From: Bacteroidaceae bacterium
Lineage (GTDB): Bacteria > Bacteroidota > Bacteroidia > Bacteroidales > Bacteroidaceae
DNA: 39,632 bases
Assembly: GCA_017521285.1 (NCBI GenBank)
Contig: JAFXDG010000078.1
Span: 1 to 39,632, forward strand
Direction: 5' to 3'
Within the stretch, counting starts at the first letter, position 1. The number at the start of each line of letters is the position of its first letter. This document shows, piece after piece, positions 23,975 to 36,989 of the stretch. The position numbers and the translations under genes were made by a program. Under the pieces are notes generated by a model. That model saw only the letters and a list, made by a program, of their open reading frames with translations. It had not been told where the DNA came from and did no database searches.

Positions 23975-26011
23975 TTATTCCTTACCTTTTAATATATCTT
24001 CCAATTTCAACAATTCGTCGCGATACTGGGCTGCTTCAAGGAAGTCGAGACGCTTGGCGGCTTCGGTCATCAATTTGCGTGTACGTTCTATGCTCTTCTC
24101 CAGTTGCGGGCGCGACATGTATTCAACAATCGGATCAGCAGCTATGGACATCACCTCAGGGATGTTCTTATCATAGCCCTGGGATGAAGTGGGTTCATCC
24201 ATGGCCTGAGGTTGGGCATTGATCAGGTTACCCATCTTCCGTTCTTTTTTGATTTGTTGGGGCACAATGCCATTCGCTTCATTGTAGGCAAGTTGCTTTT
24301 CGCGTCGCCGGTTGGTTTCGTCGATGGTCAGTTGCATGCTTTCAGTGATTTTGTCGGCATACATAATGACGCGTCCGTTGATGTTTCTGGCCGCACGACC
24401 AGCCGTTTGGGTGAGTGAACGGTGGCTTCTGAGGAATCCTTCCTTGTCGGCATCTAAGATAGCGACAAGCGAAACCTCTGGCAGGTCCAATCCTTCGCGT
24501 AATAGATTCACTCCGATGAGGACATCATAGAGACCGGCTCGCAAGTCATCCATAATCTTTACTCGTTCAAGGGTGTCCACATCGCTATGAATATAATTGC
24601 AACGGACTTGATTGTCAAGCAGATATTCGGTCAGTTCTTCGGCCATTCGTTTGGTCAAGGTAGTTACTAATACACGTTCGTCCCTTTCCACTCGTTGTTG
24701 GATTTCTTCCATCAGATCGTCAATCTGATTGAGGCTTGGACGCACATCAATTATGGGATCAAGCAATCCGGTAGGGCGGATAACCTGATCAACCACAATT
24801 CCTTCGCTACGTACCAATTCATAATCGGCCGGTGTGGCACTCACGTAGATGGTTTGTGGAGTCATGGCCTCAAATTCTTCAAACTTCAAAGGTCGATTGT
24901 CAAGGGCGGCAGGTAAACGGAAACCATATTCTACCAGATTGATTTTTCGGGCACGGTCGCCACCATACATGGCGCGTATCTGAGGTACGCTGACGTGGCT
25001 CTCGTCAATGACCAGCAGGAAATCTTTTGGGAAGAAGTCGAGCAGGCAATAGGGGCGGGTGCCTGCTTCGCGTCCGTCGAAGTAGCGAGAGTAATTCTCA
25101 ATGCCCGAGCAATGTCCCAATTCGCGAATCATCTCCATGTCATACGTCACACGTTCGTGCAGGCGCTTGGCTTCAAATTCCTTTCCTATTTCACGGAAAT
25201 AGTTTTCTTGTGCAAACAGGTCGTCTTCAATCTGATGGATGGCTCTCAGTGTGCTCTCTTTGGTGGTCATGAAAAGGTTGGCCGGATATATCTTGTATTC
25301 ATCAAAAGAACCGAGTTTCATTCCCGATACGGCATCCACCTCTTCAATAGCATCAATTTCATCATCCCAAAACATAACCCTCAGCAGGTTGTCCGCATAC
25401 GCTAAATAGATATCTACCGTATCGCCCTTCACACGAAAGTTTCCGCGTTGGAAAGTAATGTCGTTTCTACTATATTGCATATCAACCAAACGGCGTAAGA
25501 ATACATTGCGGTCGAGTAATTTCCCACGTTTTATTTCAATTACATTTTCATAGAAGTCGGCAGGATTACCCATACCGTAGATGCATGATACGGAAGATAC
25601 AACAATGACATCTTTCCGACCTGATAGCAAAGATGAGGTGGCTGCCAGACGTAACTTGTCAATCTCGTCATTGATGGCCAGATCCTTCTCGATGTAAGTG
25701 TCGCTACTGGGCAGATAAGCTTCGGGTTGATAGTAATCATAGTAGGAGACGTAGTACTCCACCGCATTGTTTGGGAAAAAGCTCTTGAATTCACCATACA
25801 ATTGGGCTGCCAGTGTCTTGTTGTGACTGAGGATGAGGGTTGGCTTGTTTATGTTTTTAATGACATTGGCAATGGTGAATGTTTTGCCCGACCCGGTCAC
25901 TCCCAATAATGTTTGTGCCGGAAGTCCCTGTTTGATGCCTTCGGTCAGTTGCCTGATGGCTTCGGGTTGGTCGCCAGTGGGGTGATAGTCTGAGATAAGT
26001 TCAAAATTCAT
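23975..26011 (-). CDS. uvrB: Excinuclease ABC subunit UvrB
   Basis: A 678-residue nucleotide-excision-repair helicase that verifies damage and positions UvrC. The start is the ATG at 26011 ([19 protein letters not shown]), the standard UvrB N-terminus; the frame stays open upstream to 26119 but those codons encode an atypical extension. Walker [12 protein letters not shown], the beta-hairpin region [33 protein letters not shown], helicase motifs V and VI ([23 protein letters not shown]) and the C-terminal UVR domain ([22 protein letters not shown]) are all intact. Full length, with no anomalies. Confidence 0.97.
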
Positions 26012-26146
26012 GTTTGCAGAGTGGTTTGCGGTGAATCCTTTTGAAAAACGGTGTAAAAATACGCATAAAATCCATAGGAAACCGCATGTATAGCCTTTTT
26101 TTGCATTAAAAAACATCAATTGATTGTTTAATTCACTGAATCTCCG

Positions 26147-31294: not shown

Positions 31295-31477
31295 TTGGAA
31301 CAGAAGTTGAAGATATCAGACAATGGTACTAACCTGCGGGTGCTGCGAGAGTTCTGCATGAAGGAGGGCGAGGCGGTCGCTTACTGCAAGGGCGACCAGT
31401 TGGAGCACGAGGGCATCCCTGCATGGTATTTTGCTTACGTGGAGTGCAGGCACTTCAAAAAGCAGCGAAACAGCTAA
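31295..31477 (+). pseudogene. N-terminal stub of a Crp/Fnr-like (cyclic-nucleotide-binding fold) regulator, copy 1
   Basis: A 60-codon frame opening with a TTG one base after the rloB stop. The segment LRVLREFCMKEGEAVAYCKGDQLEHEGIPAWYFAYVECRHFKK resembles the first strand set of the cNMP-binding domain of Bacteroidales Crp/Fnr-type regulators, which normally run on for about 150 more residues including a helix-turn-helix. The frame stops right after HFKKQ. It is clearly richer in GC than the genes around it. A second stub with the same cut point lies at 33891-34115 (19 of 44 aligned residues identical). It may be a degraded gene or a short expressed protein; I favour a fragment. Confidence 0.5.
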
Positions 31478-31494: not shown

Positions 31495-32580
31495 ATGACT
31501 TATTATACACGAAGAAGGAAGAGAGCCAAAAGACGGCAATATGAACTAAGAAGACTTCGAAGATTGGCCAAGATCAAACCTCGGAAGAAGTCTTACCACA
31601 ATTCTTTGCATGTTCAATCCAAGATAATAAGTGGAGGCATTACTTCTCATGAAGAACGGACTCCTTTTTTCCAGTTGACAGCACCTCCTGATTTCAGACT
31701 GCTAAAAAATACTGAGGGATGTATATCCTTCTTTAAAAAACTGAGAAGTAGGGATTATGCCTATAAGTCAGAAGATGGAATTTTAAGATTATTGATTGAT
31801 TTAAGATATGTTCAGCATATAGATTTTGCATCGACAATGTTACTTGAATCTATCTGTGATGAATTAGAAAAAACCAAACCAATTTGTCTTATATATGGTA
31901 ATGCACCAGTTAGATCTTCATGTAGACAGTATCTGAAAGATTCTGGATTTCTGAATAATAAAGTTGACATGACTGGAAGGCCATATGAACTATCAACTAC
32001 TAGTGAAAACATGAAGATTGCCAAAGGTAACGAGAAACTAAAGGATGACCAAATAAAGAAATTTGCTGATATGGAGAAACGAATATACAAACACATTTCT
32101 GGTTGTGAGGGTCAAGAATATAAAAGAATTGAGATTATCAAAGAAATATGTGGAAACACGGTAGACTGGAGTAAGGCAGAACATGACCAATGGTCATTTG
32201 GCATGAAATTTGAGGAGGACAAAGTAATTGTAGTAGCTCTTGACCTCGGGCAAGGAATTTTGGAATCCATCAGCAGGAATTTCACCGAATATATAAAAGA
32301 CATGTTAGACAACAATTCGCATGTGGACATATTAGAGGGGGCCTTTAATAGAAAATACGGCTCTAAATCAAAACAAACTTACAGAAACAGGGGGTTGCCT
32401 AGTATTAAGCATGCTAATACACTAGGGCACATTAAAGATTTGATTGTATTGACAAACAATGTAATATTAGACTTTACAACTTCAGAAAAGAGCAGGAAGT
32501 TTGCTAATCACAGAAACAGAGCTTTTAGTGGAACACTATATAGTTGGATTGTAGATTCATCGTGTATTAAATCAAAGTAA
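31495..32580 (+). CDS. STAS-like plus GHKL-ATPase fusion protein with basic N-terminus
   Basis: A 361-residue soluble protein. Residues 1-33 are extremely basic (MTYYTRRRKRAKRRQYELRR), as in nucleic-acid- or ribosome-binding tails. About 68-155 look like a STAS domain (ILRLLIDLRYVQHIDFASTM, then KPICLIYGNAPVRSSC). About 190-355 look like a GHKL/HATPase domain: N-box Glu217-x3-Asn221 in IIKEICGNTVDW, G1 box ALDLGQGILESI (Asp250), G2-like RNRGLPSI (297-304), and a final GTLYSWIV strand. STAS and HATPase modules usually act as partner-switch pairs (anti-anti-sigma and anti-sigma kinase); here they are fused. It heads a tight operon with a DUF4325 gene and two membrane-protein genes. The start at 31495 is preferred over 31423, which overlaps the Crp-like stub. 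Confidence 0.65.
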   Translation: MTYYTRRRKRAKRRQYELRRLRRLAKIKPRKKSYHNSLHVQSKIISGGITSHEERTPFFQLTAPPDFRLLKNTEGCISFFKKLRSRDYAYKSEDGILRLLIDLRYVQHIDFASTMLLESICDELEKTKPICLIYGNAPVRSSCRQYLKDSGFLNNKVDMTGRPYELSTTSENMKIAKGNEKLKDDQIKKFADMEKRIYKHISGCEGQEYKRIEIIKEICGNTVDWSKAEHDQWSFGMKFEEDKVIVVALDLGQGILESISRNFTEYIKDMLDNNSHVDILEGAFNRKYGSKSKQTYRNRGLPSIKHANTLGHIKDLIVLTNNVILDFTTSEKSRKFANHRNRAFSGTLYSWIVDSSCIKSK

Positions 32581-32584
32581 AATT

Positions 32585-33019
32585 ATGAAAACTTATATTA
32601 TTTCAAAAGACTATTCGCCACTGACGGGACTAAGATATTGTAACCGCAGTGATCATTCTGGTGAAGATTTTTACCACCAAAAGTTGAACGGATGGTTTAA
32701 AGAGGCCTACGAGACAAAAGAGCAAATGAAAATAGTTCTTGACGGAGGAGAGGATGGATATGGTCCTTCTTTCCTTGATGAGTCATTCGGCAACTTAGTA
32801 TACGACTTTTCATTAGAAGAAGTTGAAAAATGGCTCGTAATAGATTCAACTATTGAACCAGATTGGCAAGAGGCTATTGAAAACGAAACTTTTCCGGCGT
32901 GGCAGGAACTAAGAGATAGTGGAAAAAAACCAATTAAAACTGAAAATCATACAGCCTGGTATAGGCTAGAAGATGGTGAATTGAAACAAAAGAATTGGAT
33001 ACAGCCTAATACGAAATAA
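32585..33019 (+). CDS. DUF4325 STAS-like domain protein
   Basis: A 144-residue protein starting 4 bp after the STAS-GHKL gene. Residues 49-75 (KIVLDGGEDGYGPSFLDESF, then GNLVYDFS) match the core of DUF4325, a STAS-like fold whose hallmark is a Ser-Phe-Leu-Asp/Glu-Glu-x-Phe-Gly helix. The first 45 residues and the C-terminal 50 are unassigned. DUF4325 proteins are often encoded next to HATPase proteins, suggesting a switch in which the kinase-like partner binds or phosphorylates the STAS helix. A target is not visible. Its conserved Ser62 is the natural candidate for regulation, by analogy with SpoIIAA. Confidence 0.65.
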   Translation: MKTYIISKDYSPLTGLRYCNRSDHSGEDFYHQKLNGWFKEAYETKEQMKIVLDGGEDGYGPSFLDESFGNLVYDFSLEEVEKWLVIDSTIEPDWQEAIENETFPAWQELRDSGKKPIKTENHTAWYRLEDGELKQKNWIQPNTK

Positions 33020-33028
33020 CTAATTGAG

Positions 33029-33520
33029 ATGAATTGGACAGTTGCAGATTATCTTCAAGCTTCATCTGTATGCCTAACTGCCATGAGTATCCTTGTGACA
33101 GCTTTTATGGCTTGGTGGGTGGTGAAGTCTGTTCAGCGTAAACTGGATACAGAGAGAACACTTAAGGATCATTTTGCACATGAAGTCATCGACTTACGTA
33201 AAGAAACGAGAGACTTTATAACCAAAGTGATTAATGGTGGGATGAAAGCAAAAGACATAAAGTATAATCATTACCATCTTAGAGCGCATATCAGAGACCT
33301 TCAAAATGTTCTATTCCAAAAGTACAAGATAAACAAGACACTTCTGAAGGCATACAAAATGAATATGTTTAATATCATAGAAAAAGATAGTGAATATGAA
33401 AATGCCTTTAAGGAAAATCTCCCCGTATCCCTTTGCAGCGAAACGATATTCGCTCTTCATAAACTGGGACAAGATAATGACCATTTGTTTAACGAAATAC
33501 TATTGAAGATATATGAGTAG
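33029..33520 (+). CDS. Single-pass membrane protein of unknown function
   Basis: A 163-residue protein with one N-terminal membrane helix (about residues 9-33, ASSVCLTAMSILVTAFMAWW) and a helical, charged cytoplasmic part (KLDTERTLKDHFAHEVIDLR onward). I do not recognise a family. It lies 9 bp after the DUF4325 gene, and the next gene overlaps its end by 8 bp, so it is part of the same operon. In this setting it may be the membrane effector or anchor of the upstream switch proteins, which is inference from position and topology only. Confidence 0.6.
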   Translation: MNWTVADYLQASSVCLTAMSILVTAFMAWWVVKSVQRKLDTERTLKDHFAHEVIDLRKETRDFITKVINGGMKAKDIKYNHYHLRAHIRDLQNVLFQKYKINKTLLKAYKMNMFNIIEKDSEYENAFKENLPVSLCSETIFALHKLGQDNDHLFNEILLKIYE

Positions 33521-33782
33521 GCCAATTAAGTTAACAATTGCAATTGTAGGTGGTATTTTGCTATTATTGTCACTTGGTTTGTTCTGCATTGCCATAGGGA
33601 AAGGTTTTTCTCATGAAGAAAAATTATCTCCATCTGTTGTAGTTTTTTTTAATGAAAATGACAGTATCGTTAACGAACTACAGATGGATGTAAAACGACT
33701 AACAGATCTCATAGAAGAGATGAAATCAGATTCTATCACTATTTGCGTGAATAAAGTGCCAAGGCATAATAATATCAAGTAG
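33513..33782 (+). CDS. Small single-pass membrane protein
   Basis: An 89-residue protein: MSRPIKLTIAIVGGILLLLS begins one membrane helix (to about residue 29), followed by a 60-residue tail with a short coiled-coil-like stretch (ELQMDVKRLTDLIEEMKSD). Its ATG lies inside the 3' end of the previous gene (8-bp overlap), which suggests coupled translation. Unknown family; no homologue recognised. It closes the four-gene operon. Confidence 0.55.
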   Translation: MSRPIKLTIAIVGGILLLLSLGLFCIAIGKGFSHEEKLSPSVVVFFNENDSIVNELQMDVKRLTDLIEEMKSDSITICVNKVPRHNNIK

Positions 33783-33890: not shown

Positions 33891-34115
33891 ATGGACGGCA
33901 TTATGACCCACCAACAGAACAAGCAATTCAACACCTACAAGGAGGGACTCGATTTGGAGTTCCTGCGGGAGTACTGCATGGAGCACGGGGAGCGGTGTAC
34001 GTTCCTGCGCGGCGAGACGTTGGAGGATGCAGGCGAGCCTGCGCAGTGGGTAGCATTCATGGAGCGCAGATGCTTCAAATACGTGACGCGTAGCTACAGC
34101 AAGGCTGGCACCTGA
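33891..34115 (+). pseudogene. N-terminal stub of a Crp/Fnr-like regulator, copy 2
   Basis: A 74-codon frame, GC-rich compared with its surroundings, encoding LEFLREYCMEHGERCTFLRG, then ETLEDAGEPAQWVAFMERRC and FKYV. This matches the first 45 or so residues of the cyclic-nucleotide-binding domain of Bacteroidales Crp/Fnr-type regulators. The rest of that domain and the helix-turn-helix are missing: the frame runs TRSYSKAGT and stops. It is cut at nearly the same point as copy 1 (31295-31477). It stands alone between the STAS/GHKL operon and the convergent AbiC-like gene. Confidence 0.5.
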
Positions 34116-36467: not shown

Positions 36468-36989
36468 TCATGAATATCTCCTTCTACTGTCCGCCCATCC
36501 ACCCAGCTCTTGCTGTCTATCCAGAGACTTCAATCTATTTTCTGTAACAAAGGATACGGCTTTAATGTTAACATGTTTTTTGGAAGCTGCGTACATCATC
36601 CACGCCCCATCATTGTCTTTGCCTTCATGTTTCAGAACACCTTTCTTCTGCATTGTAGAGAGGTCGCGTTCGATGGTACGTTGGCTCACCGACAAAGTAT
36701 CCGACATTTGTCGGCCGGTGATTGTCGGAGATTCTTTGATGAGATTGAGGATTTTCTGCTGACGCTCAATGAGTTTCGTCTCCGACATGTCTCCGTCATG
36801 ATCTCCGACATTGGGAGTGTCGGTGGAAGCGAAGATGATCCCATCGTTATCTATACCGAAGAAAAGGGAGCCACCCAAGCCATTGGCAAAGGCGCTTACA
36901 CTCTTCAGCCAACTCTTAGGTTTCTTCTCTTCAAGCATCACCTTGAAGTCGTATGCAGTACATTCTGCTATCAAAGTATTTAATTCCAT
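36468..36989 (-). CDS. Internally deleted AlbA_2/HTH regulator (Schlafen-like N-term joined to winged HTH)
   Basis: A 173-residue protein. Residues 10-55 (DFKVMLEEKKPKSWLKSVSA, FANGLGGSLFFGIDNDG) match the AlbA_2/Schlafen-type N-terminal domain of a common Bacteroidales regulator, and residues 72-128 (RQQKILNLIKESPTITGRQM, SVSQRTIERDLSTMQKKGVL) are its C-terminal winged HTH. Full-length members have about 250-300 residues between these parts, so this gene looks like an in-frame internal deletion, or a minimal form. The last 45 residues (KHVNIKAVSFVTENRLKSLD, ending GGWADSRRRYS) are not from the usual family end. It diverges from the structured RNA and protease genes. Confidence 0.55.
   Translation of the reverse strand: MELNTLIAECTAYDFKVMLEEKKPKSWLKSVSAFANGLGGSLFFGIDNDGIIFASTDTPNVGDHDGDMSETKLIERQQKILNLIKESPTITGRQMSDTLSVSQRTIERDLSTMQKKGVLKHEGKDNDGAWMMYAASKKHVNIKAVSFVTENRLKSLDRQQELGGWADSRRRYS

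What the first reader, a model, noticed from the sequence alone, without database searches (positions are those of the whole stretch)
31495..33782. Four-gene STAS/GHKL - DUF4325 - membrane - membrane operon inside a defence island
Seen: four tightly packed genes (4 bp, 9 bp, then an 8-bp overlap) between an AbiL-like pair and an AbiC-like pair. The first fuses a very basic tail, a STAS-like domain and a GHKL-ATPase-like domain; the second has the DUF4325 STAS-like core with a conserved Ser; the third and fourth have single membrane helices. Established: STAS and HATPase modules form partner switches in sigma-factor control. Inference: a nucleotide-dependent switch controlling a membrane effector, possibly an undescribed immune system.
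Basis: partly seen in the sequence, partly recalled or inferred. Interest (0 to 1): 0.75.

Follow-up and report, generated by a model that had tools for sequence, protein, structure and literature searches.

The report
Kinase–STAS–membrane three-gene immune-type switch
A small set of neighbouring genes, carried between bacteria by prophages, plasmids and defence islands, looks like an alarm in which a protein kinase releases a membrane protein when a virus attacks; its design matches a switch described in 2026, but with a membrane protein where that one has an RNA-cutting toxin.

Summary
The operon is real; coordinates and spacings are right. Genes 1-3 form a conserved, mobile module; gene 4 does not belong to it. 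Gene 1 is a STAS plus GHKL protein whose nearest solved relatives are the serine kinases RsbW and SpoIIAB. Gene 2 is a DUF4325 protein whose nearest solved relative is VapS, antitoxin of VapKSC (EMBO J 2026). Gene 3 has one membrane helix continuing into a helical bundle. Starting from DUF4325 alone, the kinase lay upstream in 21 of 21 assessable genome loci and 79 of 80 viral loci, and a membrane ORF downstream in 23 of 23 and 68 of 79; a profile search of 394 genomes added 17 new loci, all with kinase, serine and membrane ORF. Neighbours include phage repressors, integrases and defence genes. Most likely the kinase, perhaps sensing phage-made single-stranded DNA, phosphorylates a near-invariant DUF4325 serine, which then releases the membrane effector. 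This is inferred from homology and conservation; no activity was tested. It is a new variant of the CapK/VapK switch.

The parts
31495..32580 (+). Gene 1: basic N-terminal helix + STAS + GHKL (RsbW/SpoIIAB-like) predicted protein kinase, 361 aa
   Evidence: Motif columns E217/N221, D250xG252, G300, G346 invariant in 88 rows; model me6967587aaf4; PDB profile search; phrog_3364 E 1.4e-18
32585..33019 (+). Gene 2: DUF4325 STAS-like protein, 144 aa; candidate phospho-acceptor Ser62 (preceded here by Pro)
   Evidence: PF14213 E 4e-7; family profile to Escherichia VapS 9z7o E 3.1e-4; Ser conservation
33029..33520 (+). Gene 3: predicted single-pass membrane protein with helical bundle, 163 aa; candidate effector
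   Evidence: Model mb167724322d2 mean pLDDT 93.0, helix 5-68 then four more helices; more Lys/Arg after than before the membrane helix in 94 of 103 rows; 29.5% identity to the same-position gene of Bacteroides ihuae
33513..33782 (+). Gene 4: 89-aa single-helix membrane ORF overlapping gene 3; not part of the conserved module
   Evidence: No relative in the loci held nor in 300 other genomes of the family

Best explanation
Genes 1-3 are a mobile, VapKSC-like partner switch with a membrane protein as output. At rest the DUF4325 protein (gene 2) binds the cytosolic helical bundle of the membrane protein (gene 3) and keeps it inactive. Infection or DNA damage activates the kinase (gene 1), probably through nucleic acid bound by its basic N-terminal helix and/or the STAS-GHKL junction. 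The kinase phosphorylates the conserved serine of DUF4325, which lets go of the membrane protein, and that damages or depolarises the inner membrane and stops growth before phage release. Shown here by computation: the conserved order, kinase motifs, the near-invariant serine, relationship to RsbW/SpoIIAB and to VapS, predicted membrane topology, and mobile or defence settings. Inferred: phosphorylation, the activating signal, inhibition of gene 3 by gene 2, membrane toxicity, and anti-phage effect.
For: Co-occurrence from DUF4325 alone: kinase upstream in 21 of 21 assessable genome-contig loci (20 by rule plus L017; the other 2 of 23 are cut by contig ends) and 79 of 80 viral loci; membrane ORF downstream in 23 of 23 and 68 of 79. 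Already the first, five-row profile found the kinase in 104 of 105 upstream ORFs; control ORFs of similar size have such a helix in 126 of 440. Profile search in an order: 18 of 394 genomes carry DUF4325, the centre genome known beforehand; in all 18 loci kinase, Ser and membrane ORF are present. Kinase: E217, N221, W233, D250, G252, G300, G346 invariant in 88 rows; RsbW E 4.6e-4, SpoIIAB about E 1e-3. Substrate: VapS is the best solved relative of gene 2 (E 3.1e-4), and a VapS stretch is itself DUF4325 (E 8.5e-16). The gene-1 profile aligns over both domains with a VapK-like protein in L112 (probability 96%, E 2.5e-9; unrelated ATPase 0.5%). Ser: 107 of 108 rows; of the 70 rows without the Ser-containing search pattern, 69 have it. 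In 39 further loci, 31 of 33 beside a kinase have it; without a kinase, 1 of 4 lineages. Setting: of 144 immediate neighbours in viral loci 21 match a phage-repressor family and 12 and 10 two integrase families. PADLOC models matched at E 1e-15: 129 for 118 neighbours, 23 for 118 control ORFs. Precedent: VapKSC gives about 2-log protection that needs the VapS serine (PMC13373217).
Against: No experiment. The kinase family is far from VapK (outgroup branch over 4 changes per column), and the gene-2 profile aligns only moderately with the VapS-type protein of L112 (probability 48%, E 1.9e-4; unrelated control 0.1%). The aromatic ssDNA contact of CapK/VapK is not evident in the STAS part. The conserved serine lies one residue further on than the VapS residue that I take to be S48. 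L140 has the kinase but Ala at the site; L165 has the serine without a kinase. A strict ExxxN...DxGxG pattern fits 91 of 105 upstream ORFs. Gene 3 has no significant structural match and is poorly conserved (9% mean column identity). IMG/VR holds only viral contigs, so the viral count shows co-occurrence, not enrichment in phages. PADLOC counts are models, not genes, and some models (mad3: 3 neighbours, 4 controls) are not enriched.
Confidence: 0.6

Rival explanations
1. The membrane protein is the sensor, not the effector: gene 3 detects an envelope event and, through DUF4325, controls the kinase; the output lies elsewhere in the cell.
For: Gene 3 is the least conserved of the three (mean column identity 9% against 18% and 29%), as expected of a rapidly changing input part; a single membrane helix with a long stalk resembles receptor layouts, and NarQ sensor fragments are among the non-significant structural matches.
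Against: In VapKSC and CapKS the output is the protein or promoter held by the STAS partner (PMC13373217); the gene order kinase-STAS-third gene is that of VapKSC; no other gene recurs beside the module in the family counts in a way that would make it the output.
Confidence: 0.2
2. A selfish maintenance (toxin-antitoxin) module that stabilises prophages and plasmids, with no dedicated anti-phage role.
For: Found on plasmids and prophages; the VapKSC relative is a toxin-antitoxin system.
Against: It does not exclude defence; a kinase suggests stimulus-driven release rather than simple addiction; it also lies beside defence genes, as in the window.
Confidence: 0.13
3. A DNA-damage switch that serves the prophage's own lysis-lysogeny decision.
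For: It can sit beside CI-like repressors and integrases (L136; L109; Francisella phage KIRK table).
Against: It recurs outside prophages (conjugative and other plasmids); RexAB-type superinfection systems also lie near CI (PMC12894663, passages).
Confidence: 0.05
4. Ordinary sigma-factor partner switch.
For: RsbW and SpoIIAB are the closest solved relatives of the kinase; 2 of 118 neighbours carry sigma-70 domains.
Against: No sigma gene is part of the recurring module; the third gene is a predicted membrane protein.
Confidence: 0.02

Closest known systems
VapKSC (Chambers et al., EMBO J 2026, PMC13373217)
   Same: Three genes in the order STAS-GHKL kinase, DUF4325-type STAS protein, effector; conserved Ser/Thr in the STAS protein; found near defence genes.
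   Different: Third gene is a predicted single-pass membrane protein instead of the VapC PIN nuclease; the kinase has a basic N-terminal helix; the candidate acceptor serine is one residue further on; the kinase family is deeply separate.
CapK+CapS (same paper)
   Same: STAS-GHKL kinase followed by its STAS substrate; defence-linked.
   Different: No HTH found on the kinase and no wHTH on the substrate, so transcription control is unlikely.
SpoIIAB/SpoIIAA and RsbW/RsbV
   Same: GHKL serine kinase and STAS partner; shared N-box region.
   Different: Kinase carries its own STAS domain; a membrane protein takes the place of the sigma factor.
Lambda RexAB and RexAB of Pseudomonas putida (PMC12894663, passages)
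   Same: Prophage-borne, near the CI repressor, a soluble part plus a membrane effector.
   Different: Two genes; 'STAS' does not occur in that paper. Resemblance in position and logic only; homology was not tested.

Membership tests
VapKSC | Kinase with STAS and GHKL domains, no N-terminal HTH | tested here: met
   no HTH match in Pfam for gene 1 or for five relatives (one of them, L110, is annotated without an N-terminal extension)
VapKSC | Second gene a DUF4325-type STAS protein | tested here: met
   Gene 2 PF14213 E 4e-7; VapS stretch PF14213 E 8.5e-16; family profile to 9z7o E 3.1e-4; weaker against the L112 protein
VapKSC | Conserved Ser/Thr at the VapS S48 position | tested here: inconclusive
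   A near-invariant Ser lies one residue nearer the conserved Phe; that S48 is the Ser before Pro in 9z7o is inferred from numbering
VapKSC | VapC-like PIN nuclease as third gene | tested here: not met
   Gene 3 is all-helical with a membrane helix, no PIN match; the third gene of the VapKSC-like L112 operon matches PIN at E 4.3e-4, just below its cut-off
VapKSC / CapK | Aromatic residue equivalent to CapK W68 or VapK F54 that contacts ssDNA | tested here: inconclusive
   Between columns 30 and 215 only columns 79 and 103 are mostly aromatic, and neither was shown to be that position; an invariant Trp233 lies after the N-box; the paper's own CapK and VapK sequences were not in hand
VapKSC / CapK | Kinase activation by ssDNA | not testable with these tools
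   Needs biochemistry
CapK+CapS | HTH on the kinase and wHTH on the substrate | tested here: not met
   No HTH in gene 1 or gene 2 (Pfam)
SpoIIAB/RsbW sigma switch | Cognate sigma factor in the operon | tested here: not met
   No sigma gene among genes 1-4 nor in the recurring three-gene order; sigma-70 domains in 2 of 118 neighbours
Known PADLOC systems | Match of genes 1-4 to a PADLOC model | tested here: not met
   No match up to E 1

The most novel reading that the evidence does not exclude
A third, separate branch of kinase-STAS immunity, spread over Pseudomonadota, Bacteroidota, Bacillota and Spirochaetota by prophages and plasmids, in which infection-driven phosphorylation releases a membrane-killing effector. 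A jumbo phage may answer it with a lone DUF4325 decoy (L070) whose acceptor serine is cysteine, so that it could hold the effector without being switched off.
Probability: 0.4. Interest if true: 0.75.

Novelty: new variant of a known kind. Interest (0 to 1): 0.62.

Why it matters
Together with CapKS and VapKSC it would make the kinase-STAS pair a general, swappable immune switch: one sensor logic with a transcription, RNase or membrane output. DUF4325, a term found in only two papers of the library searched, would gain a testable role as phospho-switch antitoxin in many prophages. The serine, which is nearly always there beside a kinase and mostly gone without one, gives a single-residue test.

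Tried and rejected
Gene 4 as a fourth component: rejected. Known PADLOC or NCBIfam systems for genes 1-4: no match up to E 1. Sigma-factor control: no sigma gene in the module. tblastn of the window's genes 1 and 2 found one plasmid record each and gene 1 no phage record, and gene 2 none in viral contigs, so the more typical L003 DUF4325 was used. The VapS stretch found no relative in viral contigs and one record each in plasmids and phages (the Leptotrichia one is a short, possibly broken copy). Exceptions, all told: Vibrio parahaemolyticus and V. vulnificus records (L133, L134, L167) hold DUF4325 plus a membrane ORF without the kinase; Pseudomonas silesiensis L165 holds DUF4325 alone with the serine kept; L143 and L070 hold it without a kinase; L144 has kinase and DUF4325 without an adjoining third ORF; L140 has the kinase but Ala at the site. 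In the Acinetobacter wuhouensis plasmid (L132) and in L168 only part of gene 1 is read in one frame; L146 is reported with one TGA inside the match. Gene 3 fold search: only generic helical bundles. The gene-1 Foldseek list is led by E-value by a Leptospira response regulator at probability 0.63. Flanking Crp-like fragments as insertion repeats: too diverged (43% protein identity; best DNA match 80% over 35 bases). Promoter and terminator scan: 13 promoter-like sites against 8.8 expected and 2 terminator-like against 1.4. Rows dropped: 2 of 23 genome loci for the kinase count (contig ends); L017 was missed by my distance rule and restored (E 2.3e-84); near-identical rows were dropped from alignments A5-A7; L070 was left out of the gene-1 and gene-3 alignments; L002-L005 were left out of A9 and A10 because the folding tool admits only window sequences and loci of certain tools; one of 145 viral-locus neighbours (a very long ORF) was left out of A13. 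97 of 108 gene-2 rows are distinct over their last 90 residues.
Full report
What is there. The window is one contig (G000:C103) of a 3.38-Mb draft genome. Upstream stand AbiLi/AbiLii-like genes; downstream on the other strand a putAbiC gene (PADLOC: AbiP) and an unassigned gene. Genes 1-4 match nothing in PADLOC or NCBIfam up to E 1. In PHROGs, gene 1 falls in phrog_3364 (E 1.4e-18) and gene 2 weakly (E 0.0011) in the C-terminal end of phrog_5816, both without function.

The unit is three genes. I searched with the DUF4325 protein only and then looked at what stands beside it. Sources: 23 loci from genome contigs, the best 80 of 171 from viral contigs, and five others including the window; two of the five repeat genome loci. 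A gene-1 profile built from five rows found the kinase in 104 of 105 upstream ORFs. By set: 20 of 20 genome loci with an upstream ORF in range, plus L017, whose ORF lay just beyond my distance limit; two more are cut by contig ends; in viral loci 79 of 80. The downstream ORF has a membrane-type helix in 23 of 23 genome loci and 68 of 79 viral loci, against 126 of 440 control ORFs of similar length in the same loci; with a milder threshold 103 of 106 rows have one. Genes 1 and 2 are within -40 to +30 bases of each other in 95 of 104 cases and genes 2 and 3 within -60 to +30 in 99 of 103. Because those collection scans used short peptide patterns, I repeated the test with a profile search: 18 of 394 genomes of the order of Vibrio comitans have a DUF4325 match, the centre genome known beforehand, and all 18 loci have kinase, serine and membrane ORF. 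The profile was itself built from serine-bearing rows, so it is less bound to the serine but not blind to it. In the window's own family 4 of 301 genomes have a match and in a phylum sample 7 of 395, the window's genome counted in both. Gene 4 was found in none of the loci held and in none of the 300 other genomes.

Gene 1. Across 88 rows E217, N221, W233, D250, G252, G300 and G346 are invariant, the pattern of a GHKL N-box and G-boxes (motif names recalled). The profile's best solved relatives are the serine kinase RsbW (E 4.6e-4) and SpoIIAB (about E 1e-3), with the STAS part matching MlaB only at E 0.66. The AlphaFold model (mean pLDDT 83.2) has a long N-terminal helix, a STAS part and a GHKL part. 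Foldseek gives SpoIIAB 1tid_C (probability 0.97, target TM 0.66) and SLC26A9, which holds a STAS domain (0.97); nothing reaches E 0.001, and the top row by E-value is a response regulator at probability 0.63. The N-terminal segment is strongly basic in 70 of the 71 rows (of 88) that have at least 25 residues there (median net charge +14; rest of the protein +5). No HTH of the CapK kind was found.

Gene 2. The deep family profile's best solved relative is Escherichia VapS, 9z7o (E 3.1e-4). The VapS stretch printed is itself a DUF4325 by Pfam (E 8.5e-16). A serine just before the conserved Phe is present in 107 of 108 rows. Since one search pattern contained that serine, I counted the 70 rows whose sequence does not contain the pattern: 69 have it, the exception being L070 (Cys), which also lacks the kinase. 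In 39 further loci (3 of them repeats of earlier ones), 31 of 33 with a kinase have the serine (exceptions: L140 with Ala, and the VapS-type L112); of four lineages without a kinase (L133/L134/L167, L143, L070/L164, L165) only L165 has it. The serine thus tends to follow the kinase, as expected of its substrate. The register is not settled: in 9z7o the Ser that I take for S48 lies one residue earlier.

Gene 3. The model (mean pLDDT 93.0) is all helix: residues 5-68 form one helix that holds the membrane segment and a stalk, followed by four helices. Lys and Arg are more numerous after than before the membrane helix in 94 of 103 rows, so the bundle should be cytosolic. No significant structural match. 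The sequence is the least conserved of the three.

Known relatives. PMC13373217 (abstract, introduction and sections 7, 11-14 and 17 read) shows that CapK, an HTH-STAS-GHKL kinase, is activated by ssDNA and phosphorylates Ser54 of the repressor CapS. It reports that VapKSC uses the same logic to release a VapC nuclease, giving about 2-log protection against one phage; ssDNA activation of VapK was predicted there, not shown. A VapKSC-like operon was found here in a gut phage contig (L112; third gene PIN-like). The window family's kinase profile aligns with that VapK-like protein over both domains (probability 96%, E 2.5e-9); an unrelated ATPase gives 0.5%. The gene-2 profile against its VapS-type protein gives a weaker 48%, E 1.9e-4 (control 0.1%). 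In a tree the VapK-like row sits on a branch longer than four changes per column, so the two are related in kind but separate families. The paper's main text does not contain 'transmembrane' and uses 'membrane' only in other senses. Literature searches listed no description of the membrane version; one search listed one further paper, on Paenibacillus larvae prophages, with one mention of a STAS-like domain protein, not read. bioRxiv, most subscription journals and all supplements were not searched.

Setting and spread. Annotated records: Marinobacter phage AS1 with the module near a Cro/CI gene, a Helicobacter prophage, a Pasteurella plasmid record with phage genes and the module right after an XRE repressor, a Leptospira plasmid, a conjugative Vibrio scophthalmi plasmid, a Vibrio alfacsensis plasmid, an Acinetobacter indicus plasmid. 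The Francisella phage KIRK table lists a 293-aa protein, DUF4325 and a TM protein in a row between CI and integrase (PMC7924643, one passage). Of 144 immediate neighbours in viral loci, 21 match the repressor family phrog_4 and 12 and 10 the integrase families phrog_1 and phrog_216. Of 118 neighbours in the 23 genome loci, PADLOC matches 129 models at E 1e-15 (first 25 shown), including R-M methyltransferases and Druantia DruE. A control of 118 ORFs, drawn from far-off stretches of 7 of these genomes, matches 23 models, many of them generic helicases and E1-E2. Models overlap, one gene can match many, and mad3 is as frequent in the control; so this is a trend, not a gene count. Pfam shows transposases, an integrase and N6 methylases among the neighbours, and housekeeping families in the control. 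The tree puts a Methylobacter row with Flavobacterium (100/99), a sign of transfer between phyla; the window row pairs with Bacteroides ihuae (100/99).

Verdict. A real, conserved, mobile kinase-DUF4325-membrane module; most likely an infection- or DNA-damage-triggered abortive system that works like VapKSC with a membrane effector. It is not filed as VapKSC, because the PIN effector is absent and the aromatic contact was not found.

Noticed in passing
L070:7977-8333 (L164; 287,660-base viral contig): A lone DUF4325 in a jumbo-phage-sized contig, without kinase or membrane partner, with Cys instead of the conserved Ser: possible phage-borne decoy. No second lone copy was found.
   Followed up: partly
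window 31295-31477 and 33891-34115: Two short ORFs on either side of the operon resemble the N-terminal part of one Crp/FNR-like regulator (43% identical to each other; a longer relative of 191 aa, just below Pfam's cNMP_binding cut-off, lies in contig C51). They may be relics left by past insertions at this site.
   Followed up: partly
L133, L134, L167: Vibrio DUF4325 followed by a membrane ORF of 126 aa but without a kinase, Gly at the serine site: a possible kinase-free derivative.
   Followed up: partly
window 32585-33019 (phrog_5816 profile positions 343-441): DUF4325 matches only the C-terminal quarter of a 441-position phage family, which hints at phage proteins in which another domain, perhaps the kinase, is fused to it.
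   Followed up: no
window 36468-36989, - strand: A Schlafen AlbA_2 segment running straight into a winged HTH in 173 aa; looks like an internally shortened regulator.
   Followed up: no
window 23975-26119, - strand: A UvrB-like gene lies a few genes upstream of the island; CapK/CapS de-repression is reported to need UvrA and UvrB, but the neighbourhood is probably coincidence.
   Followed up: no
L112:1420-3192: A VapKSC-like operon in an unannotated human gut phage contig (MT837343.1), with a PIN-like third gene.
   Followed up: partly
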